From an uncultured Lachnospiraceae bacterium (GTDB lineage Bacteria; Bacillota; Clostridia; Lachnospirales; Lachnospiraceae): a stretch of 64,000 bases of DNA. The stretch lies in assembly GCA_944381575.1 (NCBI GenBank), contig CALWLS010000004.1, positions 62,001 through 126,000 of the forward strand. Reading direction: 5' to 3'. Every line of letters starts with the position of its first letter. Position 1 is the first letter of the stretch. The position numbers were made by a program, and so were the translations under genes. This document shows, piece by piece, positions 15,937-59,859 of the stretch. The notes below the pieces were generated by a model that was not told the DNA's origin, searched no databases, and saw nothing but the letters and a program-made list of their open reading frames with translations.

Positions 15937-15942
15937 TATATT

Positions 15943-40628: not shown

Positions 40629-40994
40629 TCATATATCATTCAGGTCTATGCTAAGACCTTCAATGGCACCTGATCTTACAGACTCGCTAAACGAACATTT
40701 GCGAAGGTCATCTCCTGAAAAATCATAAATGATCACAGCTTTTTCAACTGGTTCTACTATCCAGTACTCCTTCACTCCGGATGAACGGTATTTGAACAGT
40801 TTGATCATATAGTCCATTTTCCGGCTGGCCGGTGACACAACCTCTATGATCCAATCGGGAGCTCCAACACAGCCTCTGTCATCAAGCTTTGATTCATCAC
40901 ACACGACAGTAATGTCTGGCTCGACGTAATTACTATCGTCTTTATTTAAAAATACGGCAAACGGAGCAATAAACGGCCTGCATTTACCTATTTT
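40629..40994 (-). pseudogene. Uma2-family (DUF820) protein, 5'-truncated
   Basis: C-terminal two-thirds of a Uma2 restriction-endonuclease-like protein. The open frame reads CRPFIAPFAVFLNKDD, VEPDITVVCDESKLDDRGC, GAPDWIIEVVSPASRKMD, then KYRSSGVKEYWIVEPVEKA; the conserved EPDI, the WIIEVVSP motif and Tyr/Trp pattern are intact. Upstream in frame is TAG TGA, and no suitable start or N-terminal part is present (about 60-80 residues missing compared with the usual 180-200). An ATG exists only inside (40904). Its broken 5' end lies at the transition to AT-rich DNA. Confidence 0.8.
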
Positions 40995-41274: not shown

Positions 41275-42282
41275 CTATGAATTGACATTCATTTCCAATA
41301 TAGTCATTATTTGGTCAATAACATTTGTCGCATATACACCAGCCGGCAAAATAAATTCTATATCAATCATATTTTTACCAGGATAAATATCATCTGGCTG
41401 AATTGAAGAAGATCGGTAAACCACTTCCAAATATGGTTGTCTAAAGCTTCTATTTTCAAAAACCTCGCCATTTTCATTATAACGATGCCAAATAATATAA
41501 CTCTCATTCAATGCCTCTCTGAGCATATCATTAATCCGCGATACATATATAAATTTTACGCCTTCCTTGTTAAATTGAATTTTCTCAACATCACTTTCTT
41601 CAATTAGCCTTATAATATTTCTATTCCAAATATACGCATCATATGCACTCAAAAAAAAGGTTTTTCTTCTTTCATCCATAAGACTTAAATATTTCTCTGG
41701 AGCATTTTCCCATTTTTTATAGATAAATTTATCTATATTTCCACTTCTGTACAAATATTTAAGCGCCATGACATAATTTTTAGTTAGTAAACACTCACCT
41801 ATTTTATGCGATATTTTTACAGAATTTGGCATGCCGAATCTTTGCGTGCCAAAATAATTAATTATAGGAAAACCATGTTTTTCTTTCTCACATATTAGTT
41901 CTGCTATACATAAATTTAAATTCCGTAAGCGAATTCTAAAAGAATTGCCTTGTAATTTTCCAATTTGCATAGGAACATTTGCGCTTCCAATATATTTTAA
42001 AGAAACATCCTGTATACCATTTGTTTTTTCAAAATTATCAATTTTTAATCCTTTAATTGCAATATATTGAGTTGTTATTGCATCTTCATCTTTTAACCCA
42101 GCATAAGATATATTACAAATATCTATAAACTTTTCTGCTGAAATCATATCAAGAACATCCATTGTTCTATAACCATTTTTTCTCAATAAATAATAATAAT
42201 ACTCTCCACCATCAAGGATTAAGTTAATAATTTCATTCACCCTAAAATCACTATTTAAAATTTTATAGTAATAATTCAACAT
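41275..42282 (-). CDS. TruD-family pseudouridine synthase homologue
   Basis: A 335-residue protein with all core motifs of TruD: SDFRVNEI near the N-terminus (family DFxVxE), AGLKDEDAITTQ with the presumed catalytic Asp at residue 65 (family GxKDxxAxTxQ), GKLQGNSFRIRLRN, and NYFGTQRFG (family NYFGxQRFG). The usual Arg after KD is Glu here. TruD isomerises a uridine in tRNA to pseudouridine; homologues PumJ (pseudouridimycin) and the malayamycin enzyme make free C-nucleosides. Being the last gene of a ten-gene biosynthetic operon, it is more likely a pathway enzyme than a tRNA modifier. In-frame starts exist at 42291 (GTG) and 42288; ATG 42282 is best spaced from GAAGAG. Confidence 0.85.
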   Translation of the reverse strand: MLNYYYKILNSDFRVNEIINLILDGGEYYYYLLRKNGYRTMDVLDMISAEKFIDICNISYAGLKDEDAITTQYIAIKGLKIDNFEKTNGIQDVSLKYIGSANVPMQIGKLQGNSFRIRLRNLNLCIAELICEKEKHGFPIINYFGTQRFGMPNSVKISHKIGECLLTKNYVMALKYLYRSGNIDKFIYKKWENAPEKYLSLMDERRKTFFLSAYDAYIWNRNIIRLIEESDVEKIQFNKEGVKFIYVSRINDMLREALNESYIIWHRYNENGEVFENRSFRQPYLEVVYRSSSIQPDDIYPGKNMIDIEFILPAGVYATNVIDQIMTILEMNVNS

Positions 42283-42287
42283 AGGCA

Positions 42288-43823
42288 TCACTCTTCTGAA
42301 TCTATTTGTTCTTTCAAATAAAATTCATATTTATTTATAATATTCGGCAAACTGATTTTGTTTAAACCATGACTTTCATAATTGCTCACCCAGACATCCT
42401 TTATCAAAACGTGATAAGTCGTTTCAATTCTTTTACATATAAATTTTATTATTGAATTTTGTATTGTGTTAGGATAATCAATATAGCAAACTACATAATT
42501 ATTCTGTTTAGGGTAATTAAATGTAAAGCATCTATTTACTACTATAGAATAATCTTTCAACATTCTAATAAAAGCTTCATTCAATGTATCTGCTGCAATT
42601 TTTAACCCATTATATGTAATAGTATTTACTATTCGACCCGTTATAAAAACTTTATTATCTTTAATAAATCCCATATCTCCATTGCAATAATATTTTTTTC
42701 CTTCTATAGTAATATATTCCAACTTAAAAAAAGCATTATATTTAAAATATCCTACAGCCATATACGGACTATCTATACCAATCAATCCTATTTCATTTCC
42801 TGTAACCCTACAAAGCTTATCATTAACAATAATTATCTCTGTATCCTCAAATACATTATTCCCTACAGAAACATATGTATTGCCATAGTTTTCACAAAAT
42901 GTGTTACCTATATATGGATCTTCCATACTAACTGATCCTTTTTCACTCATGCCATAAGAATTGACCAACGCCATTTTATTCATACCTAAACAGGTCATTC
43001 CATTTAACAATTTTTTAAATGTTTCTATGTTTATTTTTTCTCCTCCAAGACTCACACATATTAATGATGAAAGATCCCAATCTTTAGTTTTATTTTCAAT
43101 ACCTTGTATTATAGAACTAATAATTGCAGACGTATGTGTAACTTTTTCTATTGTTATAATCTTAAAGAGTATATCTGGATTTTCCTTTATATAACTTGTT
43201 TTGCAAAAAATTCCTTTTGCTCCAGAAATAATCGGCAATATAAAACCACTTACAAATCCATATATATGTGACAATGTTAAATATGACAAAAAAATAGAAT
43301 CTTTATTAACATGTTGAACTATTTTAATATGCTGAGCACTTCTTATTAGTCCTTCTATTGACAAACAATATGCTTTGGAATCTGCTGTTGTGCCTGATGA
43401 TAATTGAATAAAATCAAAATCACTCGTATTTATTTGCACAATCGACTCACAATCTTTGATAATTTGTATACCGTTCTTAGTATAAACCAAATCTATTGGT
43501 AGAGTTTTTTTCAATTTTAATAAGTCATCATTAATCTCATTACCAGAATCTATAGAAGTTCGCCTAATCAAAATCTTTAATTGACAACTAAATGCTGCAA
43601 TAATAAATCCTATCAACATTTCATCAAAATTGTGATAAATTATGCAAACTTTGCCAGCATATTTTGATAATTCATTAGTATATTTATCTATATATTTCAA
43701 TATTGCATAATTATTTAATGCAGATACTTTTCCTTCAGAATTGGCTGACAAAAAAATTGGAAATTTTCCATTCGTTTTTATTCGGTTTTTAATTGTACAT
43801 AATAGATATTTATTACAATCCAT
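42288..43823 (-). CDS. ANL-superfamily adenylate-forming enzyme (acyl/aminoacyl-CoA or ligase type)
   Basis: About 511 residues. Core motifs: the phosphate loop FIQLSSGTTADSKAYCLS, the A4-like ALVNSYGMSEKGSVS, GDMGFIKDNKVFITGR (A7/A8 hinge with Asp and Arg), and a C-terminal small domain. The A10 Lys is likely in HGLNKISLPN. These enzymes activate a carboxylate as acyl-AMP and pass it to CoA, a carrier or an amine. No carrier protein gene is nearby. The substrate-pocket residues were not interpreted. Frame opens at GTG 43847; ATG 43823 with AAGGTGA spaced eight bases is preferred. Part of the coupled island operon. Confidence 0.85.
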   Translation of the reverse strand: MDCNKYLLCTIKNRIKTNGKFPIFLSANSEGKVSALNNYAILKYIDKYTNELSKYAGKVCIIYHNFDEMLIGFIIAAFSCQLKILIRRTSIDSGNEINDDLLKLKKTLPIDLVYTKNGIQIIKDCESIVQINTSDFDFIQLSSGTTADSKAYCLSIEGLIRSAQHIKIVQHVNKDSIFLSYLTLSHIYGFVSGFILPIISGAKGIFCKTSYIKENPDILFKIITIEKVTHTSAIISSIIQGIENKTKDWDLSSLICVSLGGEKINIETFKKLLNGMTCLGMNKMALVNSYGMSEKGSVSMEDPYIGNTFCENYGNTYVSVGNNVFEDTEIIIVNDKLCRVTGNEIGLIGIDSPYMAVGYFKYNAFFKLEYITIEGKKYYCNGDMGFIKDNKVFITGRIVNTITYNGLKIAADTLNEAFIRMLKDYSIVVNRCFTFNYPKQNNYVVCYIDYPNTIQNSIIKFICKRIETTYHVLIKDVWVSNYESHGLNKISLPNIINKYEFYLKEQIDSEE

Positions 43824-43836
43824 TCGTTTTATCACC

Positions 43837-45750
43837 TTATTTAGCACAAATTAACTTGATATCGATTCCATTATTTCTATATATATCTGCTAACTCATCA
43901 CTTATTTTTTCATAAAAAAATCTTACATTAACATGATTTGGAATCAATACAGCTTCAAGCAGGTCTTTCTCAATAGTATAACTATCATAAAAGTTATTGC
44001 CATATAAACGGCCAGTACCATAATTATATATATTAAAATATGGAGATAATTGTTGAACTAATATTCTCTCATTTACTGCAAAACTTTCGACTACAGCAAT
44101 GCTATCAAACTGTTTAGAAAAATCTAAGTGATCAAATGTATAGTACAAAATCAATATGTCGCACATTGTCATTGCGTCCTTGATTAAAAAATCTATTTTA
44201 TCTTTACAGGAAAAATCTGTTAATACCACTACTCCAATAACACCTTTGAATAGCTCATATCTACCATTTATTAAATCTTTCAGTTTTTCTCTGGCTTTAA
44301 TAGCTACCGAATGCGTTGTTGAAAAAGATCGTAAAGCAAATATATTTTTATCATAAGTCCAATTCTCCTCTGACTCATTTAATAAATCTAATTCGTTATC
44401 TTCGAATATTTGTTTAAATAAATATTCAGCAATCAATCTATTTGCCAATGAATTGCAATGCACTGGATGATCAAAAAAGCGTACTTTTATCTCTTTATTC
44501 AAGTTGAGTGCATCATAAAGTTCATGTACATCTAAGTAATCCTCTTTAGGTAAATCATTAAAAAAATCTATTATAATAATAATGTCGTTTTTTTTCATAG
44601 GTGTTATGAGTGCTCCCATGATTGAATTAAGAACATTATTTCCATTCAATCCACCATGATTAATAACAGATACAGATTTATGCTTAGCTATACATATATT
44701 TTTAAAATATGCTGGGATTGTTTCATCATTGACAACTAACATGCCAAATACAATACATGGCCCAAAAAAATGTACTGTACATGATTCTCCCCTAAAAGAT
44801 AAAGTGCCTGGTATTTGTCTTTTCCCTTCTGAGACTTCTATCCCAAAGGTGTTGCAATCCCCTTGTATTATATCTATCCCGCTATCCCATCGAACAGACT
44901 CGCTTGCACCACGCATTGATACGAATTTTTTATCTTTATCTGATAAACAAAATTCTTCCAAGTATTCTTCATTATTTATCAAGTCGAGAAAAGAAAGTTT
45001 ATTATCAATTACTTTTTTTTCCTTCTCTGATAAATTACTAATATAATTGTAATTTGGTATTCTATACATTTTTAGTAAGAGACCGTAATTTTCCGTGTAG
45101 TCAACCAATCTATCAATAGCAATCTTTTCAATAATTGAATATATATCAATTTTATTATATTCCCCTATAATCTTACTGAGCAGTTTCTTTCCATATTTAT
45201 AATCCAACACATATTCTATTGACCCCGCTTTAACTTCTAATAAATCTTTAACAAATTCAAAATTCAATTCTTGAAAATGAGATTTTAGAAATTCATATAC
45301 ATGTTCATCTGCAAATACTGTGATAGTGCTATTGCTATACTGATTAAGTTGTTTTCTAACATCTTGAGCAAAAAGATTCATAAACCTTAATGCAAAAAGT
45401 TCACGTTCAATACAGTGTAGCAATTCTGGTTCTTTCATTAAGTTGATCTCATATTGAAATTCGTTATCATCTATAACAACTATCCTGCTTAATTCATTAT
45501 GAGCCGTAATATATTTATCTATTCCAATTTGCTCTATATATTTTTTTTCAACAACATAGCTTCTTGGTTTTTTATGCAAACCATGTTTTATAAAATCATG
45601 ATAACTAATAGCATCCGTGAATACATTATTATCTATAATGTATAAATATTCATATCCATATCTTGCAAAATGTTCTACAGCAAACAATATGTCAATACTT
45701 TTATTATTTATACTATGTATTTGTAATCTACTCCTAATTTGATATTGCAT
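43837..45750 (-). CDS. CBS-like / SGNH-like / nucleotidyltransferase-like protein, paralogue 2
   Basis: A 637-residue soluble protein, paralogous to the gene at 49770-51701 along its whole length. Residues about 1-120 resemble a CBS-like sensor (FARYGYEYLYIIDNNVFTD). The middle carries an SGNH-hydrolase-like fold with FFGPCIVFGMLV where GDSxT usually stands, INHGGLNGNNVLNSIM (block with Gly/Asn), and FFDHPVHCNSLANRLIAEYL, the D-x-x-H catalytic pair. The C-terminal 170 residues (GVVVLTDFSCKDKIDFLIKD) recall the cytidylyltransferase fold of citrate-lyase ligase, but its HxGH motif is absent. Frame opens at TTG 45765; ATG 45750 aligns with the paralogue. Function unknown; may activate or transfer an acyl or sugar group. 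Confidence 0.7.
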   Translation of the reverse strand: MQYQIRSRLQIHSINNKSIDILFAVEHFARYGYEYLYIIDNNVFTDAISYHDFIKHGLHKKPRSYVVEKKYIEQIGIDKYITAHNELSRIVVIDDNEFQYEINLMKEPELLHCIERELFALRFMNLFAQDVRKQLNQYSNSTITVFADEHVYEFLKSHFQELNFEFVKDLLEVKAGSIEYVLDYKYGKKLLSKIIGEYNKIDIYSIIEKIAIDRLVDYTENYGLLLKMYRIPNYNYISNLSEKEKKVIDNKLSFLDLINNEEYLEEFCLSDKDKKFVSMRGASESVRWDSGIDIIQGDCNTFGIEVSEGKRQIPGTLSFRGESCTVHFFGPCIVFGMLVVNDETIPAYFKNICIAKHKSVSVINHGGLNGNNVLNSIMGALITPMKKNDIIIIIDFFNDLPKEDYLDVHELYDALNLNKEIKVRFFDHPVHCNSLANRLIAEYLFKQIFEDNELDLLNESEENWTYDKNIFALRSFSTTHSVAIKAREKLKDLINGRYELFKGVIGVVVLTDFSCKDKIDFLIKDAMTMCDILILYYTFDHLDFSKQFDSIAVVESFAVNERILVQQLSPYFNIYNYGTGRLYGNNFYDSYTIEKDLLEAVLIPNHVNVRFFYEKISDELADIYRNNGIDIKLICAK

Positions 45751-45754
45751 AGTA

Positions 45755-47176
45755 TCATTCTCCAAGAGAAAAAATAGCTTGCATTAATAAATTCTGCTCA
45801 CTTTTATATGAAAACTTTTTAGAAATAATAGATAAAGCATCTGACATTTCTCGGTACTTGTCTGGATTACGTATAAGTCTAACTATCATTTCTGACATAT
45901 CTGATAAAGAATTTGCAAAATAAATTCCTTTATTTTTATCAGATAATTCCTTTACCGTTTTTAATACATCAAAAACAATAGTAGGCAAGCCAGCACTTGC
46001 TCCTTCAAATATCCCTCTACCAAAAGTTTCCCATGAAGACATAGATATATTTATATCCATTTCGTCTAATAATTTTGCCAAATTTTCTTGTGAAATAGAA
46101 ATATGAAACTTAATGTATTCAGAAAGACCTTTATCTTTCATAAGTTTACAGAATTCTGCATAGTATTCCCGTTCCTGAATTGTCGTCACTAAATGTAATT
46201 CGAATTCATATTCGCTCTGCATCAATTGTTGAAATAGCTCCAATATCATTTTTGTATTTTTCTGTTTTTTTATTGTGCCGATACAGATAAGTTTGATAGA
46301 TTTCTTTTTTGTAATTTTTCTTTTTTTATACTGAATTAATGGTGAAATGCCTCTATTTATCACCATAATCTTTGATTCATCGCATTGGTAATCATTTATC
46401 AAATCTAACTTTTCATCATTAGATGGCGTTATTATTTTTTTTACATTCTCGATTACAATTTGTTCTTGTATAGTATACTCTTTCGGAACTATCTCTCCTG
46501 CTTTCTCGTATGAAGAAGTACAAAACATCGGAAAAATAATGGTTTTTTTCCAGAAATCTTTGCCTGCACTCTGCATGCCAAATAACTTACTAATATGACC
46601 TGCTATAATTACATCATACTTATCAAAATTTTTAAGAGCTTCATAATTGGTATCTAAGTTTTTTAGTCTACGAGTGAACTTATTATCCCAAGGATCTTTG
46701 TATGTCACATATCTAACTTCACATACTTCACCATCGAAAAAAGTTTCTTTATTTTTCCTTATAAAACAAACACTAAGATTACATCTAATCTTTAAAGAAT
46801 TTATTAACTGTCTTGCTAAAATACTACCTCCATCAATATCAAATCCATAACCTGGAAATTTGCCTAAATACAGCAAAACATTCTTTTTTCTGTTAATATA
46901 ATCTAATGTTGCATATTCTATAGCTTCTTTTACAGAATTAGTACCGCTGAGTCTTCTAAGGTTATTTGATTCAATCACAGAAGTATCTTCGCTTAAAACA
47001 TATACTAAATTAAATCTCTGAATTTCTACAGGTACTGTTTCTGTAATTAACACAGAAAATTCTGGATTACTCCCATTTTCATAAACATCTTTTTTCCTGT
47101 ATAAAACTTCTAATAAATCTTTTTCATCATCAGACAGTCTCTCTATAATATGATTATCAATAACTAAGCTTTCCAT
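45755..47176 (-). CDS. Glycosyltransferase family 4-like enzyme
   Basis: A 473-residue GT-B glycosyltransferase. Residues about 1-95 are an extra N-terminal domain of unknown role. The catalytic part starts at NVLLYLGKFPGYGFDIDGGS (donor/acceptor Gly-rich loop), has KIITPSNDEKLDLINDY, ICIGTIKKQKNTKMILELF, and the nucleotide-sugar E-x7-E type motif FGRGIFEGASAGLPTIVFD. It would retain stereochemistry and transfer a hexose from a UDP/GDP-sugar, perhaps one oxidised by the dehydrogenase of the same operon. Three bases from the PP-loop gene. Confidence 0.85.
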   Translation of the reverse strand: MESLVIDNHIIERLSDDEKDLLEVLYRKKDVYENGSNPEFSVLITETVPVEIQRFNLVYVLSEDTSVIESNNLRRLSGTNSVKEAIEYATLDYINRKKNVLLYLGKFPGYGFDIDGGSILARQLINSLKIRCNLSVCFIRKNKETFFDGEVCEVRYVTYKDPWDNKFTRRLKNLDTNYEALKNFDKYDVIIAGHISKLFGMQSAGKDFWKKTIIFPMFCTSSYEKAGEIVPKEYTIQEQIVIENVKKIITPSNDEKLDLINDYQCDESKIMVINRGISPLIQYKKRKITKKKSIKLICIGTIKKQKNTKMILELFQQLMQSEYEFELHLVTTIQEREYYAEFCKLMKDKGLSEYIKFHISISQENLAKLLDEMDINISMSSWETFGRGIFEGASAGLPTIVFDVLKTVKELSDKNKGIYFANSLSDMSEMIVRLIRNPDKYREMSDALSIISKKFSYKSEQNLLMQAIFSLGE

Positions 47177-47179
47177 TTA

Positions 47180-48937
47180 TTATTTTCCAATTTTTTCAAT
47201 TAATTTATTTATATTTTTGTCGCTAACGCCAATATGACTAAGATAATTATATGCAGATTTATACTTTTCTAAAAATCTAATAATAAACTCCACTGGCACG
47301 TTAGACGAATATTCATATACTTGGCTTTCATTTTTTTCAATATTCAAAAACAGATCACTAACAACATAATCCAGCACTATTCCTGCTCTTGATTTATTAG
47401 CTAATAAGCTTAGAATAATTGAAATAATGCCAGTCCTATCTCGCCCATTCTTGCAAAATATCAGCACACCACCATCATTTTCTGCTATAGTATCAAATAT
47501 TCCCCTTACATTCGTACATTCACTACTTATCATTTTCATATAACTGTCAATTTTTTCATATAATGAATAGTTCCGTTTACAATCATGATAATTATTTATA
47601 GCAAACGGAACTCGTATGTATTTTATCCCTTTAGTAGTAAGCCTTTGAATAAGATCTTCACTGCATTTTTTCCTATTTCTTATGTCAATAGCTGTAAATA
47701 TTTCATTATTAGCTAAATACGTAATATCATCATCATTTATATTATCAATTGCACCACTTCGTAATATTCTTCCATACGATTTATTAGCAGATATATATCT
47801 ACAGTTAGTTACACTCTGCAAAATATTTGAATCTTCTATTTGAATCCAATCATCTACATAGAAAATATTAAAGTTATATGTATGGAATAGTTCCAAAAAT
47901 AAATTTTCCAATTTTGCTTGTTCTACATATTTAAGCGAACAATAATCCCCAACTATCTTTAATTCCTTTTTGAGAAGTCGAGCATTGATTTCAGCATAAT
48001 CAGAACTCATAAAAAGTTTATCATTATCCATATGGGTAATTTTTCTAATTTCTAAAAGCCTTTCCATGAATCTTGAAAACAAGTTTATAATATTATTTTC
48101 ATCTAATAAGTCTGGATATATCTCTACAGAAAAGAAATATCTTTTATAAATGCTTTTTATTCTATATTTTTTTTTCAACTCAATACATCTATCCATCAAA
48201 TAATGTTTGCACAATTCCTCATATCCCTTTGGTAAAGTAACTATCATCTCACTAGGCATATGTATTGATGCTTTTATTCCATTTTTCGTTGCAAACTCTG
48301 AACATAAAATATTTGTCTTTTTTAATTTTTCCATTAATTCTTTTGAATACATCACGCCAAAATCTTTAAACTGTAGTGGACAGCCTTCTCTTGAATATTC
48401 AAAATATTTATCCCCAGTATCATTATTTCTTTTAATTTTAATTGAATGTTTATCTAAATAGTCAATAACTTCATTATTATTAAAAGTTATTAATGGCCGT
48501 ATAATAAAGATATTATCTGGTAATTCCACTGCCTTATTGAAATATCTGTTTATGACCAAATTTCCGCTATCATAAGTTTTAAGTCTTTCAACTAAAGCAG
48601 TATCACTATATGTATCTCCAACACAAATATAATCAAAATTATTCTGAACAGCTAATTTAACAGTTTCGCTATCCATTACTCCTTTGCAGAATCTACATGG
48701 TCGTCCACTAAATCCTGATAAGAACAAAGCTTCTATCTGCTCGGTAATATCAATAATATATAATTTTACACCGTACTCATTACATATTCTTTTGGCCTCT
48801 ATCGTTGGCAAGGTGTAACCATATTTGTGAACAAAATGTACAGCTTCAATATATGCGCCTTCTTCAAGTAACTTGATAATGCAAGCAGTACTATCTTTTC
48901 CTCCAGAATATTGAACAAGTATCTTTCCTTTTAACAT
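47180..48937 (-). CDS. PP-loop ATP pyrophosphatase fused to a tyrosine-phosphatase-like domain
   Basis: A 585-residue two-enzyme fusion. Residues 1-200: adenine-nucleotide alpha-hydrolase with P-loop YSGGKDSTAC (11-16 SGGKDS), a CxxC pair RPCRFCKG (Cys81, Cys84) and a later REGCPLQ, like PAPS-reductase/thiouridylase-type PP-loop proteins that adenylate a carbonyl for sulfur or nitrogen insertion. Residues about 240-370: linker of unknown fold. Residues about 385-585: Y_phosphatase3-like domain with GRILRSGAIDNI, FTAIDIRNRKKC and the CX5R loop FCKNGRDRTGIISI. Phosphatases of this kind work on phosphorylated intermediates in peptidyl-nucleoside pathways (nikkomycin/polyoxin). This combination is not one I know. 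Its start overlaps the preceding stop. Confidence 0.85.
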   Translation of the reverse strand: MLKGKILVQYSGGKDSTACIIKLLEEGAYIEAVHFVHKYGYTLPTIEAKRICNEYGVKLYIIDITEQIEALFLSGFSGRPCRFCKGVMDSETVKLAVQNNFDYICVGDTYSDTALVERLKTYDSGNLVINRYFNKAVELPDNIFIIRPLITFNNNEVIDYLDKHSIKIKRNNDTGDKYFEYSREGCPLQFKDFGVMYSKELMEKLKKTNILCSEFATKNGIKASIHMPSEMIVTLPKGYEELCKHYLMDRCIELKKKYRIKSIYKRYFFSVEIYPDLLDENNIINLFSRFMERLLEIRKITHMDNDKLFMSSDYAEINARLLKKELKIVGDYCSLKYVEQAKLENLFLELFHTYNFNIFYVDDWIQIEDSNILQSVTNCRYISANKSYGRILRSGAIDNINDDDITYLANNEIFTAIDIRNRKKCSEDLIQRLTTKGIKYIRVPFAINNYHDCKRNYSLYEKIDSYMKMISSECTNVRGIFDTIAENDGGVLIFCKNGRDRTGIISIILSLLANKSRAGIVLDYVVSDLFLNIEKNESQVYEYSSNVPVEFIIRFLEKYKSAYNYLSHIGVSDKNINKLIEKIGK

Positions 48938-49755
48938 TACTTTATCACTTTCAAATTTATATTGTTCGTTAATGCTTTGTACATAGTATATGAATAATAG
49001 GGTTTTTTTACATAAACTCTAACGATTGGTACATTGATATTTCCATATAGATAATATAGACATACAAGTCTATGTGTCCCGTCTCTTACAACATTTTCAT
49101 TTCCATAGACAACAATAGGATATATTTCCTTAGACTCTTTTAATTCTTTCAAAATATTATTTATTCGCTCAGCATTACTCTCACAAATATGATTTGTGAT
49201 CATATGACCATTATCAACATAGCCTTGTTTTAATTTCTTATATAAAGAATGATCATAAACACGAACTTTTGTAGGCGCTTCTATTTTTTTATGTTCATAT
49301 AACGCTAGTGTCATTATTTTTTTTGTAGCATATTCTACCCTTTCGATTCTTGGAATATCTACGCCAAGCATATGTTCCAAATAAGTTGGCGAAAATATCT
49401 TATAATCTATGCTTTTATTACCATAATTCTGATTTAGAAATGAATAAATTATCTCACATTGCCACTGAAATGAATCAAAAGAATATGTAAGTGAAAGTTC
49501 ACCAAATAAATTCAATATAATTACATGGTTAACCAAACAAATCTTTAAACCATACGATTTTTTATTTATAATTTCTATAGTATTATTACATAATTTAGAT
49601 TTTTTATTTTTAATATAAGAAATTTCATAATTTGCCCTTAGTATAGTAACTATAATTTCTATCGCATTTATTTCATGTAATGTGCATTCATACAATTGTG
49701 ACTCTATACATAAATGTATATTGTTATTAATGCGTTTAAACCATAAATAATTCAT
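48937..49755 (-). CDS. ParB/sulfiredoxin-fold protein
   Basis: 272 residues. The first 110 residues are beta-rich and unrecognised. The C-terminal half carries IYPIVVYGNENVVRDGTHRL followed by YYLYGNINVPIVRVYV, the ParB/Srx nucleotide-binding motif (hydrophobic strand, xDGxHR, then VPVxx). DNA-binding parts of chromosomal ParB are absent. Stand-alone proteins with this fold include SbnI/SerK-type kinases and nucleases. In this operon a small-molecule kinase role is plausible; not proven. It ends on the start of the PP-loop fusion. Confidence 0.65.
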   Translation of the reverse strand: MNYLWFKRINNNIHLCIESQLYECTLHEINAIEIIVTILRANYEISYIKNKKSKLCNNTIEIINKKSYGLKICLVNHVIILNLFGELSLTYSFDSFQWQCEIIYSFLNQNYGNKSIDYKIFSPTYLEHMLGVDIPRIERVEYATKKIMTLALYEHKKIEAPTKVRVYDHSLYKKLKQGYVDNGHMITNHICESNAERINNILKELKESKEIYPIVVYGNENVVRDGTHRLVCLYYLYGNINVPIVRVYVKKPYYSYTMYKALTNNINLKVIK

Positions 49756-49769
49756 CGAATTATAATTCT

Positions 49770-51701
49770 TTACACCTTTCTTATCTTTATCCTGCTACCT
49801 TGCTCTTTAGAAACAGCTGTTAAAATATCATAAAAAAATAAATTTTTAGTGCTGTCATGATAAAAATACGTGTTTATTCCTAATTCGTCATTGATTAGTT
49901 TGAAAAAAGCTTTTTGTGTAAATATTATCTGTTCCTTACATTCATTTCTGATATCCTCTGTAATGCAATAGCGCTCCGCATAAAAGAAATATTCCAACGG
50001 AATTCCTATTACCTTTTCTGAATCCAGCGAATGTACATATTCGTATAAATATTTATTATCATTTAAATTTTCAATTTCTGCATTGATGAAAAAAATATAT
50101 AGAAAATCGCACAGTAACAAGCAATCATCTACAAGTTTTTCACCTATCTGAATTCCCTCTTTTCCTGTAATAACTAATGCTGCTACACTCCCCTTCTTGT
50201 TCTTATGGACAGAATATTTCTCAAATATTCTCCGTTGTTTAACAAATGATGCGTGCGAAATAGATATGTTTGCTAATGAATCAAATGGATCAATTAACAG
50301 AGGTTTCCTATAATCTTTTTCCACTTCATTACATTGATATCTATTTACTAAGTCATCAAATATGTTTTTTGCCATTATCTTATTCGCATCATAATTACAA
50401 TGACCCGGGAAATCAAAAAAATGCACTTCTTCTTTCGATTTTTCCGCATTAAACCAATCCTTTACAAATGTAATTTGCGGATATTTATCATATGTTAAAT
50501 CTTCTAAAACATCCAAGAATATATGCATATCGCCTTTTTTCACTGGAACCTTCAACGCTTCCATTATAGAATTTAATTCGTTGTCTCCATGAATACCTGC
50601 CCTATTATGAACCTGAATCTTTATGCCTTTTTCTATAGCATAATGTTGAATTATATTTGGCACAGTTTCCTCATCCCTTACTAAAAAACCATAAGCTGTA
50701 CATGGTCCATATATATTCACAATGCTGCCCTCACATTTACCATGCCCATTATTTCTTATTCCATTGTGAACATTAATACCCGGACTAATAGCTTCGTCCA
50801 TAATAAAACAATACCCGTTATCTAATCGTTGAGATGCATGAAACTCCTTATTACGAAGATATTCTTTTTCTTTTTCTTCTTTCGTAAACAAGTCCATATA
50901 TGGTTTATTATTAATCAATTGTCCAATAGTTTTCCTATTATATGAATTCTCTTCCTCAAATTTATGCAAACAGGATAAATCTTGAAATCTTGGTAACTTA
51001 TAAAACAATAATGAAACATCTCTTTTACTTGCTAAATCTACAAGTTTTTCAAATGCCATTGCAGTTAGAACTTTACATAAATCTAAAACATTATTTAATT
51101 CAGGGGCTAAAATCCTCCTTATTTTTTTTGTAAACATAAAATCAAAGCAAATATCTATTTGCCGATCTCTTACTATTGATACTGCTTGTTCAATGCATCC
51201 AGCATAAATCATATTTTTATCTGCAAAAAATGTCTGTAGATAGTTATATACTTCATATTCAGAAAGGATTAAAATGCTGCTAAACTGTTTAAAATATACT
51301 GAAAGTTCATGATGAAATATATTAACGTATCTCAATGACATTAAATTCTTTGCAATAGAATTTTGTAATGGTAATTCTATTAATGCATTAACCTCACATA
51401 TTACATTCTTATCCTTTATAAAAACAATTCTTTCTGCATCCAAATCTTCGAGAAAAGCTTTTTCTATGTCCGTTTTTTTTATATTATCCGAATATTTCTT
51501 TATAAATCGGCGATTTAGACTATCATTAATTTGTCCCAAAGAAAAATCCTGGAATGTAACAATATAACTTAAATTTCCATTTTTATTCACATATAGTGGA
51601 TCATAGCCATTTTTAGCAAAATGAATGGATAATTCCTCCCAGGAAGGATCTTTGTCATAAATCACTGCTAATGAATCTGCATACTTAATCTGATATCTCA
51701 C
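49770..51701 (-). CDS. CBS-like / SGNH-like / nucleotidyltransferase-like protein, paralogue 1
   Basis: 643 residues, GTG start coupled (ATGA-type overlap) to the upstream glycosyltransferase. Same architecture as the gene at 43837: CBS-like N-terminus (FAKNGYDPLYVNKNGNLSY), a helical middle, SGNH-like block with NIYGPCTAYGFLV (Gly322-Pro-Cys324), VHNRAGIHGDNELNSIME, LDVLEDL, and FFDFPGHCNYDANKIMAKNI for the D-x-x-H pair, then a degenerate nucleotidyltransferase-like C-terminus (VAALVITGKEGIQIGEKLVDD). In both paralogues Cys replaces the SGNH Ser, reminiscent of WcbI-type enzymes. They probably act on two related substrates or as a heteromer. Confidence 0.7.
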   Translation of the reverse strand: MRYQIKYADSLAVIYDKDPSWEELSIHFAKNGYDPLYVNKNGNLSYIVTFQDFSLGQINDSLNRRFIKKYSDNIKKTDIEKAFLEDLDAERIVFIKDKNVICEVNALIELPLQNSIAKNLMSLRYVNIFHHELSVYFKQFSSILILSEYEVYNYLQTFFADKNMIYAGCIEQAVSIVRDRQIDICFDFMFTKKIRRILAPELNNVLDLCKVLTAMAFEKLVDLASKRDVSLLFYKLPRFQDLSCLHKFEEENSYNRKTIGQLINNKPYMDLFTKEEKEKEYLRNKEFHASQRLDNGYCFIMDEAISPGINVHNGIRNNGHGKCEGSIVNIYGPCTAYGFLVRDEETVPNIIQHYAIEKGIKIQVHNRAGIHGDNELNSIMEALKVPVKKGDMHIFLDVLEDLTYDKYPQITFVKDWFNAEKSKEEVHFFDFPGHCNYDANKIMAKNIFDDLVNRYQCNEVEKDYRKPLLIDPFDSLANISISHASFVKQRRIFEKYSVHKNKKGSVAALVITGKEGIQIGEKLVDDCLLLCDFLYIFFINAEIENLNDNKYLYEYVHSLDSEKVIGIPLEYFFYAERYCITEDIRNECKEQIIFTQKAFFKLINDELGINTYFYHDSTKNLFFYDILTAVSKEQGSRIKIRKV

Positions 51702-52762
51702 TTTTGTCCCTCAAAGTCGTCTAATATAATTTTGGCACTCTTTTCCCATGAGTATTGCAGAATAGCAGTTCTTAAAAACATATTTGCAGATTTGTTTCCT
51801 ACAGAATTTAAAGCATTCATTACGCTATTCTCATCATTAAACATATAAGTATATGGAGTTATTTGTTCTGTTAAATTATTTCTATTTGTTACACAAACAG
51901 TCCCTGAACTAATTGTTTTAATAAACCGATCATGTATGCATGCATGATAATTTGGATCTACATTAACGGCAAAAGAATACTCATTTATAAATTTACTTAA
52001 TTTTTCGTAGGCAATAGTTGGTAAAAAACTGGCATTGGAATTTTTAATATCATTTCCGAAATCATCACTTAATATATCAATTGGCAAATCATAAATATGT
52101 TCTATTACCCATATTCGTTTTTCTATACGTATATATTCATTTGTCAATCGAAAAAAAGCTTCTTTATCACAAATATGTTCGTAATCAAAAAAGCTATATA
52201 AAAATTTAATATATGATGAATCTCTATCATACAGTTCGAGAAATCTCTTCATAAGTGAAGATTCCTTGGATTCATTAATCTTTCTATATATATAATTTAA
52301 ATTTCTAATCTTACAAGGAATAATAACCCTTTCATTCTTTTTTTGAGGTTCCATCACATTTCTTTCAAGAAATCCTATGGGGCGAAATAAGTATCCGTTT
52401 GGTGAATCATGTTTTAACATCATCGGATACTCGTTGTCGATAAATATATACTTTACCCACTTACTATCTACATCTAAATTCATCTTTAATGGATTATCGG
52501 AAACCCACTGATAATTTATTTTATGATATATTTCATATAATGGTATTTCATCAAGAAAATACTTATATTTACTAAAACCTATAGAAAAACTAATGTCTTC
52601 ATTTTCATATAAATGTATTGCTTCCTTTATAGTAGATGCTGTAAAAACTCGTACATCATAAGTAGTAAAAGCTTCCATCAGTTCATCAAAAAAAACTTGA
52701 TTGGAAGAATATGATCCATAAAAATTATTATTTAAACCCAAGACAGTAATTTGTTCTTGCAT
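51698..52762 (-). CDS. CgeB/GT-B-like glycosyltransferase
   Basis: A 354-residue protein. The C-terminal half resembles CgeB-like glycosyltransferases: SFAVNVDPNYHACIHDRFIK followed by TISSGTVCVTNRN, where the His/Arg helix and small-residue turn normally bind the nucleotide-sugar. The N-terminal half is Rossmann-like (NVFTAST, FSIGFSKYKYFLDEIPLYEI) and poorly conserved. It has AGGAG six bases ahead of its ATG and is 17 bases after the kinase gene. It may transfer the same sugar as, or a second sugar after, the GT4 enzyme of this operon. Confidence 0.7.
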   Translation of the reverse strand: MQEQITVLGLNNNFYGSYSSNQVFFDELMEAFTTYDVRVFTASTIKEAIHLYENEDISFSIGFSKYKYFLDEIPLYEIYHKINYQWVSDNPLKMNLDVDSKWVKYIFIDNEYPMMLKHDSPNGYLFRPIGFLERNVMEPQKKNERVIIPCKIRNLNYIYRKINESKESSLMKRFLELYDRDSSYIKFLYSFFDYEHICDKEAFFRLTNEYIRIEKRIWVIEHIYDLPIDILSDDFGNDIKNSNASFLPTIAYEKLSKFINEYSFAVNVDPNYHACIHDRFIKTISSGTVCVTNRNNLTEQITPYTYMFNDENSVMNALNSVGNKSANMFLRTAILQYSWEKSAKIILDDFEGQK

Positions 52763-52779
52763 ATTTCTCCTATTTACTT

Positions 52780-53313
52780 TTATATTATTGTATCTACATC
52801 AGAAATAAATGCATTAACCTGCCGCCTACTATTAAATCTAATGACATCTGCTTTACTATACATTGAAATCATTTTTTCAATTTGAGGCTTATTTACAATA
52901 TTGTACTCTTTTACGTAACTAATAAATCCTTCATAATCTTCGCAACCATGAACTATATTTGTACTTTGTCTACGTATTTCAATACCACAAATACATTCTT
53001 CAATAGGCAAATCCAAATACATAATTAATTCAGCCTTACTAATTCTATCTTTGAGAACTCTTAAATATGTACCATCAATAAACCACTTTTTTTCTTTTAT
53101 TATTGCTTTTATCTTTGCATCTAACTCTTCATCACTTAATGGAATTTTTTCATCTTTCCATAATATTTGGTCAACATGAAACACTGGACCATCAAAATAA
53201 TGTGATAGCCGTTCTGTTAGAAAAGTCTTTCCACTTCCAGGTGCTCCAATTATAATAATTTTATCAGCAATGAATTTTCTATTTGAAAACCACTTATCAA
53301 TCCTCATGCTCAT
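52780..53313 (-). CDS. Adenylate-kinase-like P-loop kinase (FlaR/topology-modulation type)
   Basis: 177 residues. Walker A IIGAPGSGKTFLTERL (Gly23-Thr30), VFHVDQILWKDEKIP, KWFIDGTYLRVLKDRI, and LIMYLDLPIEECICGIEIRR follow the order of the adenylate-kinase-related FlaR/topology-modulation family. Members phosphorylate small molecules or nucleosides, mostly uncharacterised. The pseudouridimycin cluster also holds an adenylate-kinase-like gene beside its TruD-type synthase, so this gene may phosphorylate a nucleoside intermediate. Only 13 bases from the dehydrogenase. Confidence 0.8.
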   Translation of the reverse strand: MSMRIDKWFSNRKFIADKIIIIGAPGSGKTFLTERLSHYFDGPVFHVDQILWKDEKIPLSDEELDAKIKAIIKEKKWFIDGTYLRVLKDRISKAELIMYLDLPIEECICGIEIRRQSTNIVHGCEDYEGFISYVKEYNIVNKPQIEKMISMYSKADVIRFNSRRQVNAFISDVDTII

Positions 53314-53326
53314 AATTAATCTTTGT

Positions 53327-54502
53327 TTATATACAGTCTATATCTCTTGAATAAATTTTATGTTTGTACTGCGCCAATTCATCTGTAATTCTATCGGCAA
53401 CAATAACATCACAATTACTATTTAATTCATCCAATGATTTGACGAAAATCACTTTCTCGTAATTTCCTTTCTCCACAATTGATGGTTCAAACAAATACAC
53501 GCTTCTTCCTCGTCTCACCAATTCTCTCATTATATCTACTGTCGCTGAATACCTAATACTCTTTGTTTCTTTTTTTTCTTCATTTAGCCTAAAAAATCCA
53601 ATGGTGCCTTCCAATGAATCAAGTTCATTTATAATACGCAGCTTTCGTATTTCGTTTGAAGTATGTATCGAATTAATAAGCACGGCATCCTTCCCCAATA
53701 GTTTGGCAGTTTGAATAACATCTTTTGGTAAACAGTACCCTCCATAACCGAACGATGGACTATTATAGATATTTCCTATTCGTGGATCCTCACAAACGGC
53801 ATCTATTATTCGTTTAGTACTCAGATCATTCATTTTTGCAAAATAATCAATCTCATTAAAAAACGCAACTCGCATTGCCAAATAAGAATTAGAAAATAAT
53901 TTAACCGCCTCTGCTTCATCTGGTTGCATTATCATTAATTTGTAATTTTCGTTTTTATTCGCCTTGGCAATTGCATCCCGATATAAATAATAAATATTTT
54001 TAGATAATTCTATTTCTCCACCTATAATTATTCTGTTTGGATTCACCATATCAATATAAGCATTTCCTTCTCTTATAAATTCTGGCATAACCAATATCCT
54101 TACATATTTATACTTGTCTATTAGGCTTCTTGTAAATCCAATTGGAACTGTCGATCTAATGATAATTGTTGTATTACGCTTTTGATTTAATATATCATCA
54201 ACAATAGTTTCTATAATATTTGTATCAAGATTTCCACTTTCCTTATTCAAATCAGTTGGCAATGCAAGAATAATTATATCGGATAAATCAATTAATGAAT
54301 CTTTACTACTACACATTTCATAATTAAGATCATATTTAAGCCATATTTCATATAAACTATTGTCATCAAGTGGAAGAATACGGTTAGCTATCAACTTTCT
54401 TTTTTCTACATCAATATCCCACAAAAAAACTTTGTAATTTTGAGCTAACAGTGTAGCATTCGCCAAACCCACAACACCGCATCCAATTATACCTATATTC
54501 AT
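53327..54502 (-). CDS. UDP-glucose/GDP-mannose-type sugar-nucleotide 6-dehydrogenase
   Basis: 391 residues. N-terminal NAD site GIIGCGVVGLANATLLA, then IILALPTD, IIIRSTVPIGFTRSL and PEFIREGNAYIDMVNPNRII; the central helix DEAEAVKLFSNSYLAMRVAFFNE; the catalytic Cys in SFGYGGYCLPKDV. The C-terminal UDP-binding part includes SATVDIMRELVRRG. Oxidises the C6 alcohol of a nucleotide sugar to a uronic acid in two NAD-dependent steps. Start MNIGIIGCG at 54502 rather than 54535. First gene of the ten-gene operon; it suggests that a uronic-acid-type sugar enters the product. Confidence 0.92.
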   Translation of the reverse strand: MNIGIIGCGVVGLANATLLAQNYKVFLWDIDVEKRKLIANRILPLDDNSLYEIWLKYDLNYEMCSSKDSLIDLSDIIILALPTDLNKESGNLDTNIIETIVDDILNQKRNTTIIIRSTVPIGFTRSLIDKYKYVRILVMPEFIREGNAYIDMVNPNRIIIGGEIELSKNIYYLYRDAIAKANKNENYKLMIMQPDEAEAVKLFSNSYLAMRVAFFNEIDYFAKMNDLSTKRIIDAVCEDPRIGNIYNSPSFGYGGYCLPKDVIQTAKLLGKDAVLINSIHTSNEIRKLRIINELDSLEGTIGFFRLNEEKKETKSIRYSATVDIMRELVRRGRSVYLFEPSIVEKGNYEKVIFVKSLDELNSNCDVIVADRITDELAQYKHKIYSRDIDCI

Positions 54503-54700: not shown

Positions 54701-56905
54701 TTAAAATGGGATATTTGTAAAAAAATCAACTGTCTTTTTTGCATCTTTCAACCCATTATATAATTCTGCCAGACTATAACTATTTATTTCTTTATAAAGA
54801 TCATCAATATGATTTTTCCATTGTGTTTCTACTTCATGTACCGCCTTTACAAAAGCTACCTCAGTATCTTTCCAAAACTTTTCAATATTGGCTTTGTATT
54901 TCAAAATTGCATCCTGTTCGTTATAAGCTTTAATTATGTTTTTTGCTGCTTTCTTTTTCCAATTTCCCGTAAAAATCCCATATATACTTAATGCAGCAAT
55001 TACGGCTAACGCCACGCCTAAAACAACTGGTCCTCCTATAGATGCGACAAAAGAAACTGCAGCCGCAGTGCCCCCGACAGATATACCTAATGCAGACAAC
55101 AAACTAACTCCTTTAGCCACAAGTATATATCCACCTAAATTACCCAGAGTGGATGCCCAAAAAGCAAGGCCTCCAAATGCTGCCAACCCCGCAAGTCCCG
55201 AAGCGAACGCTCTCTTTGCATTAAACTTTAACATGTCAGTACTAATACTCTTAACGCCATCAATATTCCCCTTATTTTCAAAGGTTTTTAGATATTCATC
55301 TATTTTTTTACTTAATAATTCAGATTTATTTTTTAATATTTTATTAACTTCACTTTCTAACTCTGAATTTAAATATGAGCTTAAAAGCTGCATATCTTCT
55401 TTTTTACTTTTGAATTTTTTTTCATCAATTATCTGTATAATGTGTTCTATATTAAAGATATTTTGATACCCATCTTCAAATTCCTCTTTTGACTGCACAT
55501 TATACTTATTAATTGAATCTAAAATATCTACTTTTTTTTCATTAGCTTTTGCTTTTCTTACAGGTTCATTTCTTTTTATTTCATTTATTAAATCAACATA
55601 TTTTTCCCTTTCTTCTATTAATTTTTGATATTTATCGACGTCTCTACTTAAATTCAACTTTTGCTCTTCACAATAGTGCCCTATTAAATCAATAGTCTTC
55701 ATCTTTATTATATCTGGCAGCTTTTCAATTATAGAACTGAATTCATTTTCAAATCTAAATCTTACATTAGGAATATCAGTTGTATAACTAAAGAATCTTT
55801 TTCTAAAATCTTCTTTCGATATTTCAGCATTACTTAATGAACGACTTTCCCAGAATTTATCAGGCAATGTCCTGCAAAACCTATCTGCACCATCACACAT
55901 TATCTCATTCAATTTTTGTGGATTTCCACTATCAACTATATGTGCCTGTGTAGCGACTACAAAAAGATTTGATAGTGGATCAATTTCTATATAGTTATTA
56001 TCTTCAATAACAGCCAGCTTATTTATACCCTCTTTTAAATACACACAATCTTCTACACTCATAAAACCGCCGCCGGCTTGTGATAAATATACGAGCACAT
56101 CTGCCTGTGACTGAATATTTCGTGCAGTGATATTATCGCTTTCTATTCCTCCTGTAAAACCCGGCACATCAATTAAGTCACAGTTTTTTAAAATATCGCT
56201 GTCTGCAAATAAAATCGCTGCTCCGATTGAATTTTCATCAAATTTGTCACCACGCCTCACTCCATAAGATGAAAGCAATTCCGCATTACCTGATGCGAGT
56301 TTCCATTCATTGCAATATGCCTCCTCATTAATCTTCGTATCATCCCATTTAACAGTAGGCTCTCCCTTCTTAAATATGATTAAATCGTCTTTTATGAAAT
56401 CCGGCCTGTCCTCAATATGTTTAATATAAACCACTATAGAAGTTGTCGGTGTCCAATTTGTCGGCATTAAATTTCGCCCGATCAAAGCATTTATCATTGT
56501 GCTTTTACCAGAATCAGATCTTCCTATAAAGATCACTTTAGGTTTTCTTATATATTCATCTACTATTTCCTGCAGCTTTTCTATATCTCCATTGTATCTA
56601 CTACCTTTAAGCTCTTCTGAATAAGAAGCAAGATAATCTATTATTGTTGATTTAACATACTTAGCATTGCTCCATGTTCTTGAAACTTCCAAAGCTTTTA
56701 CTATTGGTTTTTTATATGATACAAGCTGATCCAAAGTTAAACCTGTTTTTTCAGCTATGTTTATTAATAATGTCAACGAAATTTGATCTGGGTTTTTCTC
56801 CATCCTTGACACTGTATCCTGCCTGACGCCAATAAGATTGGCTAACTCTGCTTGTGTCATCTTTAAACTGTTTTCACGGAAACTCTTCAAATCAAAATCA
56901 TGCAT
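54701..56905 (-). CDS. XRE helix-turn-helix fused to a bacterial dynamin-like GTPase
   Basis: A 734-residue fusion. Residues 13-62 are an XRE HTH (MTQAELANLIGVRQDTVSRM). A helical link leads to the dynamin GTPase: P-loop FIGRSDSGKSTMINALIG (about 127-140), switch 1 TPTTSI, G3 DVPGFTGG, and VVATQAH at the G4 position. Long helices (about 380-540; EKYVDLINEIKRNEP) form a stalk, then a hydrophobic, glycine-rich paddle (AGLAAFGGLAFWAS to VIAALSIYGIFTG, about 560-650) that would insert in membrane. Dynamins remodel membranes; several act in phage or stress protection. The HTH suggests self-regulation via the palindrome upstream of the adjacent small gene. Confidence 0.88.
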   Translation of the reverse strand: MHDFDLKSFRENSLKMTQAELANLIGVRQDTVSRMEKNPDQISLTLLINIAEKTGLTLDQLVSYKKPIVKALEVSRTWSNAKYVKSTIIDYLASYSEELKGSRYNGDIEKLQEIVDEYIRKPKVIFIGRSDSGKSTMINALIGRNLMPTNWTPTTSIVVYIKHIEDRPDFIKDDLIIFKKGEPTVKWDDTKINEEAYCNEWKLASGNAELLSSYGVRRGDKFDENSIGAAILFADSDILKNCDLIDVPGFTGGIESDNITARNIQSQADVLVYLSQAGGGFMSVEDCVYLKEGINKLAVIEDNNYIEIDPLSNLFVVATQAHIVDSGNPQKLNEIMCDGADRFCRTLPDKFWESRSLSNAEISKEDFRKRFFSYTTDIPNVRFRFENEFSSIIEKLPDIIKMKTIDLIGHYCEEQKLNLSRDVDKYQKLIEEREKYVDLINEIKRNEPVRKAKANEKKVDILDSINKYNVQSKEEFEDGYQNIFNIEHIIQIIDEKKFKSKKEDMQLLSSYLNSELESEVNKILKNKSELLSKKIDEYLKTFENKGNIDGVKSISTDMLKFNAKRAFASGLAGLAAFGGLAFWASTLGNLGGYILVAKGVSLLSALGISVGGTAAAVSFVASIGGPVVLGVALAVIAALSIYGIFTGNWKKKAAKNIIKAYNEQDAILKYKANIEKFWKDTEVAFVKAVHEVETQWKNHIDDLYKEINSYSLAELYNGLKDAKKTVDFFTNIPF

Positions 56906-59563: not shown

Positions 59564-59859
59564 ATGCAATCTCCTCACACTTAATAATCAAGATTATAAT
59601 TCAGTCTTCCTTAATAATTTCAAGATTTTAAATCATTTTCCAGATTAACACTTTTCCTATTTAATCACGCCATTAACTTATTTACTTATTAAATTATATT
59701 TTTAACACTACTTTATTTTTCTTTTAATGTCTTTTGTCGACTTTTTCGAATCAATTGATACACCACGTCGATATCATAAAAAATATTCCAATTCTCTTTT
59801 ATAATTATTATATTTATTTATTGGCTTTTATCAAATATAAATTTTTGTAATTCTTCCAA

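What the first reader, a model, noticed from the sequence alone, without database searches (positions are those of the whole stretch)
41275..54502. Ten-gene operon that looks like an undescribed glycosylated C-nucleoside pathway
All ten genes run on one strand with gaps of about -4 to 17 bases. The set combines a TruD-type pseudouridine synthase, an adenylate-kinase-like kinase, a PP-loop/phosphatase fusion, an ANL adenylating enzyme, a ParB-fold protein, a sugar-nucleotide dehydrogenase, two glycosyltransferases and two odd paralogous SGNH-like proteins. TruD-type enzymes are the C-glycoside-forming step in pseudouridimycin and malayamycin (established), and the former cluster also has a kinase of this type. 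The inferred product is a pseudouridine core, activated/acylated and decorated with a uronic-type sugar. I know of no such cluster in gut anaerobes. No exporter or regulator is inside it.
Basis: partly seen in the sequence, partly recalled or inferred. Interest (0 to 1): 0.95.

Follow-up and report, generated by a model that had tools for sequence, protein, structure and literature searches.

The report
Foreign operon for a sugar-bearing C-nucleoside
An apparently foreign, AT-rich block of ten genes carries a pseudouridine-synthase relative from a branch that holds apparent C-nucleoside antibiotic clusters, apart from presumed tRNA-modifying enzymes, together with sugar-transfer-type genes and a gene predicted to add sulfur, so it likely makes a still unknown sugar-bearing pseudouridine compound.

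Summary
The ten-gene operon is real, compact and on one strand, in a 26-35% GC island inside a 46-50% GC chromosome. The TruD-like protein is not the host's tRNA enzyme: TruD occurs in 1 of 196 sampled genomes of the class, this one, and in a 57-row tree the window's 12-row clade (100/100) lies with TruDs of C-nucleoside-type loci, opposite all 16 presumed tRNA TruDs used (100/99). Two loci with DNA context, L002 and L003, carry homologous operons with TruD but without the ANL, kinase and UGD genes. The likely core is TruD, a PP-loop enzyme, a phosphatase, glycosyltransferases and SGNH-like protein(s). The PP-loop part has the SGGKDS/CxxC/Cys signature of TtuA-type sulfur transferases, kept in 117-120 of 120 homologues. 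The phosphatase fold differs between relatives. Against a pure natural-product reading, distant SGNH relatives sit mostly in surface-glycan-like loci. Best reading: an acquired pathway to a glycosylated, probably thiolated pseudouridine derivative. TruD's clade and the gene anatomy are shown; substrate, order of steps and product are inferred.

The parts
53327..54502 (-). UGD: nucleotide-sugar (UDP-glucose type) dehydrogenase; first gene; not found in the L002/L003 loci
   Evidence: TIGR03026 250.6 bits, over its cut-off 189.8; GYGGYCLPKD present; no hit in L002/L003 loci or their upstream stretches
52780..53313 (-). adenylate-kinase-like P-loop kinase (FlaR / 'DNA topology modulation' type)
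   Evidence: GAPGSGKT; not found in the L002 and L003 genomes
51698..52762 (-). GT-B type glycosyltransferase-like protein (weak Pfam match)
   Evidence: PF13524, E 0.022; conserved in L002 (72%) and L003 (37%); fused to the PP-loop domain in 5 proteins
49770..51701 (-). SGNH1: CBS pair + SGNH-like domain + degenerate HIGH-type nucleotidyltransferase domain
48937..49755 (-). conserved protein with DGTHR motif (ParB/sulfiredoxin-like by eye; fold not confirmed)
   Evidence: 64% identical in L002; no Pfam; model failed
47180..48937 (-). PP-loop (residues 1-360, TtuA-like three-Cys) fused to Y_phosphatase3 (about 388-582)
45755..47176 (-). GT4 glycosyltransferase
   Evidence: PF00534 1.7e-18; L002 78%, L003 44%
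43837..45765 (-). SGNH2: paralogue of SGNH1
   Evidence: 24% identity to SGNH1 in A3; L002 orthologue 66%
42288..43847 (-). ANL-type adenylating enzyme, no carrier protein seen among the ten genes
   Evidence: PF00501 3.7e-27; SSGTT; no match in the L002 and L003 genomes
41275..42291 (-). TruD-like pseudouridine synthase of the side of the tree that holds C-nucleoside-type TruDs; last gene

Best explanation
The operon is an apparently acquired block whose TruD-like protein groups with those of C-nucleoside-type loci and not with presumed tRNA TruDs, and it is predicted to make a glycosylated pseudouridine compound that likely also carries sulfur. Predicted course: (1) TruD converts a uridine nucleotide (or free uridine) into its C-glycoside; (2) a kinase puts on and a phosphatase takes off a temporary phosphate, as proposed for pseudouridimycin, malayamycin and polyoxin; (3) the TtuA-like PP-loop domain adenylates a base carbonyl and replaces its oxygen by sulfur; (4) the GT4 and GT-B enzymes add sugars, in this strain probably including a glucuronate made by the UGD; (5) the ANL enzyme and the two SGNH-like proteins (Cys at the nucleophile position) attach or trim an acyl group. 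TruD's place in the tree, the three-Cys signature, the intact phosphatase, kinase and UGD motifs and the conservation of the core operon are shown. Substrates, order of steps and product are inferred.
For: TruD: 12-row clade with 100/100 support, on the opposite side of a 100/99 branch from all 16 presumed tRNA TruDs used (same split with 86 rows). Of these L014 holds radical SAM, EPSP-synthase-like, two 2OG oxygenases, an aminotransferase, Y_phosphatase3 and a kinase, the malayamycin gene kinds (PMC8724604, passages), and L016 a GMC oxidase and HAD phosphatase beside TruD. GxKD motif invariant in 27 of 27 aligned rows. TruD in 1 of 196 class genomes. Kinase within the locus in 11 of 21 of those loci against 0 of 56 (dereplicated 8 of 17 v 0 of 31 long loci, Fisher p 6e-5); phosphatase by a 4-sequence HMM in 9 of 21 (3 of them built it) v 0 of 56. 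PP-loop: TtuA is matched including CxxC; SGGKDS letters kept in 117-118, CxxC in 119 and Cys186 in 120 of the 120 homologues listed (of 229 found). Phosphatase swapped between relatives: PTP fusion (window, L002), HAD fusion in P0174, whose contig has the same length as TruD P0032's, predicted PHP gene in L003. Operon conserved with TruD in L002 and L003.
Against: Only three loci give DNA context. ANL and kinase were not found in the L002/L003 genomes. FlaR-like kinases are common in the class (42 of 148), and the nearest there is as similar to the window's by identity (30%) as those of the C-nucleoside-type loci (24-31%), so the kinase may be an independent recruit. The phosphatase domain by itself finds only 2 of 21 such loci. 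No signature tailoring enzyme of pum or mal is present, and the published pum and mal sequences were not compared. A metagenomic TruD clade of unknown role (6 rows, 25), two of its members named tRNA TruD by NCBI-type annotation and some by JGI, lies on the same side of the tree. Distant SGNH relatives in 8 other genomes of the family sit mostly in loci that look like surface-glycan loci. Most listed PP-loop homologues are free-standing (83 of 120 are 350-430 aa) and their substrate is unknown. No exporter or self-resistance gene was recognised.
Confidence: 0.55

Rival explanations
1. A surface-glycan decoration operon: the glycosyltransferases, UGD and SGNH/HIGH proteins build or modify a cell-surface saccharide, and TruD and the PP-loop enzyme supply an unusual nucleoside-like decoration or are passengers.
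For: 8 other genomes of the 397 searched in the family hold distant SGNH relatives, and by eye (no family search) most of their neighbourhoods show glycosyltransferase, sugar-nucleotide, NeuB/CMP-sugar-like or LicD-like genes, one with a UGD hit; two GTs and UGD are in the operon.
Against: In the window family the HIGH motif of the third domain is lost in 19 of 19 rows, while it is intact in 8 of 9 distant relatives and in L003, so the proteins have changed role; no polymerase, flippase or initiating phosphoglycosyltransferase match among the ten; none of the nine regions has a TruD or PP-loop hit; both close operon relatives keep TruD.
Confidence: 0.22
2. An RNA-directed system: TruD and the TtuA-like enzyme act on tRNA or another RNA, making a hypermodified (pseudouridylated, thiolated, glycosylated) nucleotide in RNA.
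For: Both enzyme families act on tRNA in their best-known members (TruD; TtuA, matched); glycosylated tRNA nucleosides such as mannosyl-queuosine exist (general knowledge).
Against: TruD groups away from presumed tRNA TruDs and misses the cut-offs of all 7 NCBIfam tRNA TruD models that it matches (best 132 v 172 bits; whether C-nucleoside TruDs miss them too was not tested); ANL, UGD and phosphatase fit a small molecule better (inference).
Confidence: 0.13
3. A chemical anti-phage system: the operon makes a nucleoside or nucleotide analogue that blocks phage nucleic-acid synthesis, as viperins do.
For: The operon stands beside a dynamin-like HTH protein with a LeoBC match (2.5e-16); in L002 it lies 45 bp after a helicase (MkoA model, E 4e-113)/PIN/AAA/radical-SAM gene group.
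Against: None of the ten proteins matches a PADLOC model beyond generic QueC and P-loop hits; neighbours differ between loci.
Confidence: 0.1

Closest known systems
Malayamycin cluster (mal) and the malayamycin-like loci L014, L009, L022
   Same: TruD of the same side of the tree, a Y_phosphatase3 phosphatase, an adenylate-kinase-like kinase
   Different: no radical SAM, EPSP-like enolpyruvyl transferase, 2OG oxygenase, aminotransferase or MFS gene in the operon; instead PP-loop, GTs, UGD, ANL, SGNH proteins
Pseudouridimycin cluster (pum/sap) and the pum-like locus L016
   Same: TruD-like enzyme (PumJ) and kinase (PumH, called a PolQ2 homologue in PMC8724604, passages)
   Different: no GMC oxidase, PLP aminotransferase, ATP-grasp ligase or amidinotransferase; no sequence of the published pum cluster was compared here
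TtuA/TtcA/NcsA tRNA 2-thiolases
   Same: SGGKDS PP-loop and CxxC aligned with TtuA, and a conserved third Cys (its equivalence to the third Cys of TtuA is recalled)
   Different: E only 7e-5 to TtuA; fused to a phosphatase or a glycosyltransferase; predicted substrate a small nucleoside
CgnD, hydrolase that frees the crocagin core (PDB 8a2n)
   Different: 15% identity, Cys at the nucleophile position, flanked by CBS and PanC-like domains
SGNH/citrate-lyase-ligase-like proteins of mostly surface-glycan-type loci in the same family
   Same: SGNH and HIGH domains in the same order
   Different: HIGH motif intact there in 8 of 9, lost in 19 of 19 window-type rows

Membership tests
TruD-type C-nucleoside biosynthetic clusters (pum/mal) | TruD-like synthase phylogenetically apart from tRNA TruDs | tested here: met
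   (tRNA label presumed from taxon)
TruD-type C-nucleoside biosynthetic clusters (pum/mal) | catalytic Asp motif of TruD retained | tested here: met
   GLKDED; K67, D68 invariant in 27 of 27 rows, aligned with the GTKD of PDB 1z2z
TruD-type C-nucleoside biosynthetic clusters (pum/mal) | PumH/PolQ2-type kinase in the cluster | tested here: inconclusive
   present in the window; gene kind enriched near such TruDs, but generic in the class and not found in L002/L003
TruD-type C-nucleoside biosynthetic clusters (pum/mal) | pum (GMC oxidase, aminotransferase) or mal (enolpyruvyl transferase, radical SAM) tailoring genes | tested here: not met
   none among the ten proteins
TruD-type C-nucleoside biosynthetic clusters (pum/mal) | pseudouridine-containing product | not testable with these tools
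   needs chemistry
tRNA pseudouridine-13 synthase TruD | groups with tRNA TruDs / passes the curated equivalog cut-off | tested here: not met
   (TIGR00094 132.3 < 172.2 bits); it does pass Pfam's broad TruD cut-off (149 v 27 bits)
TtuA/TtcA-type sulfur transferase | SGGKDS, CxxC and third Cys | tested here: met
   at least 117 of 120, 119 of 120 and 120 of 120
TtuA/TtcA-type sulfur transferase | Fe-S cluster and thiolation activity | not testable with these tools
   needs purified protein
Surface-glycan biosynthesis operon | flippase, polymerase or initiating phosphoglycosyltransferase | tested here: not met
   none among the ten proteins
Surface-glycan biosynthesis operon | SGNH proteins with an intact HIGH motif, as in the distant relatives | tested here: not met
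   0 of 19 rows
Anti-phage defence system | specific PADLOC model for an operon protein | tested here: not met

The most novel reading that the evidence does not exclude
A new branch of C-nucleoside natural products: a sulfur-bearing, glycosylated pseudouridine made by a mobile operon of Lachnospiraceae-type bacteria, the first TruD-type C-nucleoside pathway of Clostridia, in which a tRNA-type thiolase has been recruited to a free nucleoside and the phosphatase of a temporary-phosphate step has been replaced at least twice.
Probability: 0.33. Interest if true: 0.88.

Novelty: new variant of a known kind. Interest (0 to 1): 0.72.

Why it matters
TruD-type C-nucleosides include pseudouridimycin, a bacterial RNA-polymerase inhibitor (PMC10127198, abstract), and are reviewed from actinobacteria (PMC8724604, passages). 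A TruD of that side of the tree in a Lachnospiraceae-type operon, with a thiolase signature, glycosyltransferases and CgnD-like proteins but none of the known tailoring enzymes, would point to an unexplored chemical class and to a small-molecule role for TtuA-like enzymes. It also gives a new system in which to ask what TruD acts on in such pathways, a question called open in PMC10127198 (passages).

Tried and rejected
ParB-fold/SerK-like kinase idea for 48937-49755: two-row model failed (pLDDT 35.3), so no claim. Empty site in the same-genus genome G117: no match for one flank gene and only 47% at best for the other, dropped. Kinase as direct proof of a C-nucleoside cluster: weakened. PP-loop family elsewhere, at E <= 1e-30: 1 of 397 genomes of the family and 1 of 391 of the class, both the window's own. 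TruD profile in the family: 1 of 397, the window's own. Promoter scan was at chance level (128 found v 131 expected) and terminators near it (7 v 4.7). Rfam and tRNA scans found nothing in the island. Rows dropped before counts: alignment A1 took 26 of the 32 close TruD hits (near-copy P0001 and P0018, P0019, P0020, P0024, P0029 left out) plus the window; the trees used chosen rows: 13 and 12 window-type, 21 and 18 of the 21 C-nucleoside-type loci, 19 and 16 presumed tRNA TruD loci out of 56; L052 (partial TruD, 71 aa) was left out of trees and; seven metagenome TruD rows under 300 aa were left out from then on; I used 64 of the 120 listed PP-loop rows and 14 of the 40 remaining TruD rows, because their contig lengths were typed by hand. 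The labels 'C-nucleoside-type' (L004-L024) and 'tRNA TruD' (L025-L081) rest on score band and taxon and, for 6 of the 21 former loci, on Pfam content (ten genes in L014, two each in L006, L009, L012, L016, L022); L006 and L012 did not show a clear pum or mal gene set in the genes scanned.
Full report
Observation. The ten genes are there, all on the minus strand, with overlaps or gaps of -11 to +17 bases. The whole block from about 41 to 61 kb is 26-35% GC in a chromosome of 46-50%, with host-like sequence on both sides of the same contig, so it looks like an acquired island and not a binning error (inference).

TruD is not the host's usual tRNA enzyme. PF01142 rings in 1 of 196 genomes of the class, the window's own (7 of 14 control genomes ring), and the clade profile in 1 of 397 genomes of the family, again the window's own. 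The protein misses the curated equivalog tRNA TruD cut-offs but keeps the GxKD motif, invariant in 27 of 27 aligned rows. A 57-row tree puts all 16 presumed tRNA TruDs used (archaea, Pseudomonadota and others) on one side of a 100/99 branch; the 12 window-type rows (100/100) lie on the other side with 18 rows from L004-L024, 5 further metagenomic rows and 6 rows of a metagenomic clade of unknown role. The 86-row tree shows the same split, except that two further metagenomic rows fall on the tRNA side. The nearest neighbour inside that side is not resolved (92/73 for Legionella L009 plus P0033).

What those loci are. L014 has, beside TruD, radical SAM, two 2OG-Fe(II) oxygenases, an EPSP-synthase-like protein, an aminotransferase, a Y_phosphatase3, an adenylate-kinase-like kinase and an MFS transporter: the kinds of genes given for malayamycin in PMC8724604 (passages). 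L016 has a GMC oxidase and HAD phosphatase next to TruD, reminiscent of pseudouridimycin. The same review says that PumH is a PolQ2 homologue thought to phosphorylate the nucleoside at 2', with later dephosphorylation; PMC10127198 (abstract and passages) reports that SapB takes unphosphorylated pseudouridine, saw no activity on 2'- or 3'-phosphorylated uridine, and calls the kinase's function unknown. Around TruD, a kinase like the window's occurs in 11 of 21 of these loci and 0 of 56 presumed tRNA TruD loci; dereplicated and restricted to long loci, 8 of 17 against 0 of 31 (Fisher p 6e-5). A phosphatase HMM made from the window and three loci finds 9 of 21 against 0 of 56, the window's domain alone 2 of 21. 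The kinase family is however common in the host class (42 of 148 genomes), so its presence in the window alone proves little. The PP-loop domain and the GT, UGD, ANL, SGNH and ParB-like proteins have no match in any of the 21 loci.

The PP-loop domain. Residues 5-166 match TtuA-type chains in the PDB, including the CxxC. Across the 120 listed homologues (of 229) the SGGKDS letters are kept in 117-118, C81 and C84 in 119 and C186 in 120. That three-Cys pattern is the [4Fe-4S]-binding signature of TtuA/TtcA/NcsA thiolases (recalled). The domain is fused to a tyrosine-type phosphatase (window, L002), to a HAD phosphatase (P0163, P0174; P0174's contig has the same length, 12,411, as that of TruD P0032) and to a relative of this operon's GT-B protein in 5 proteins. 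In L003 the PP-loop is separate and a PHP-type gene stands between it and TruD. The recurrent link between PP-loop, a phosphatase of changing fold and a glycosyltransferase supports a pathway that works on a phosphorylated small molecule (inference).

What is core. L002 holds GT-B, SGNH1, the ParB-like protein, PP-loop-phosphatase, GT4, SGNH2 and TruD in the window's order; L003 holds GT-B, an SGNH-HIGH-GT4-APH fusion, another GT, PP-loop, PHP and TruD, without a ParB-like hit. In neither genome was the kinase or the ANL found (one search had no positive control, and these are MAGs), nor a UGD in the two loci with their upstream stretches. Contig lengths link TruD and PP-loop hits in 5 cases, PP-loop and SGNH hits in 8, and TruD and SGNH hits in none (32 TruD rows, 64 PP-loop rows, 32 SGNH rows compared; only the longest contig of each row is known). 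The likely core is thus TruD, PP-loop, phosphatase, GTs and SGNH protein(s), with UGD, kinase and ANL as local additions.

Verdict. The most economical reading is a laterally acquired pathway to a glycosylated pseudouridine derivative, probably thiolated, with a temporary phosphate. Its first step is expected to work like that of the known TruD-type C-nucleoside pathways, but it is not a member of pum or mal, because their tailoring genes are absent. Paper searches for TruD-type C-nucleosides outside actinobacteria or in gut bacteria showed none among the papers listed (open-access papers only, lists capped, read as listings except the three papers cited).

Noticed in passing
L014, L015, L017, L018 (Xenorhabdus), also L009 (Legionella MAG) and L022 (Pantoea dispersa): Malayamycin-like C-nucleoside gene sets in Gammaproteobacteria: TruD with (L014) radical SAM, EPSP-like, 2OG oxygenases, aminotransferase, Y_phosphatase3, kinase, MFS; the others share most of these families. 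Of 12 papers holding three of the terms pseudouridine synthase, biosynthetic gene cluster, Xenorhabdus and C-nucleoside, the 9 listed showed none on this (listing only).
   Followed up: partly
window 57732-59000 and 59057-59578 (-): Radical SAM protein directly after a 173-aa ORF with a Cys-rich acidic C-terminus: a possible radical-SAM-modified peptide pair in the same island.
   Followed up: no
window 54701-56905 (-): HTH domain fused to a dynamin-like GTPase, upstream of the operon on the same strand; LeoBC/LeoA matches.
   Followed up: partly
L091:1803-11951: Upstream of the L002 operon: MkoA-like helicase, PIN-domain protein, unknown protein, AAA ATPase and a small radical SAM gene, ending 45 bp before the operon.
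   Followed up: partly
window 40629-40904 (-): 91-aa ORF matching the end of a Uma2-type putative endonuclease at the island's left edge.
   Followed up: no
25 metagenome rows between P0038 and P0067 in the tree: A tight metagenomic TruD clade on a long branch on the C-nucleoside side of the tree; role unknown.
   Followed up: no
L003:1905-6212: One 1435-aa ORF joining SGNH, intact citrate-lyase-ligase-like, GT4 and APH-kinase-like domains.
   Followed up: partly
window 15806-15944 (-): Ribosomal protein L10 leader, ordinary.
   Followed up: yes
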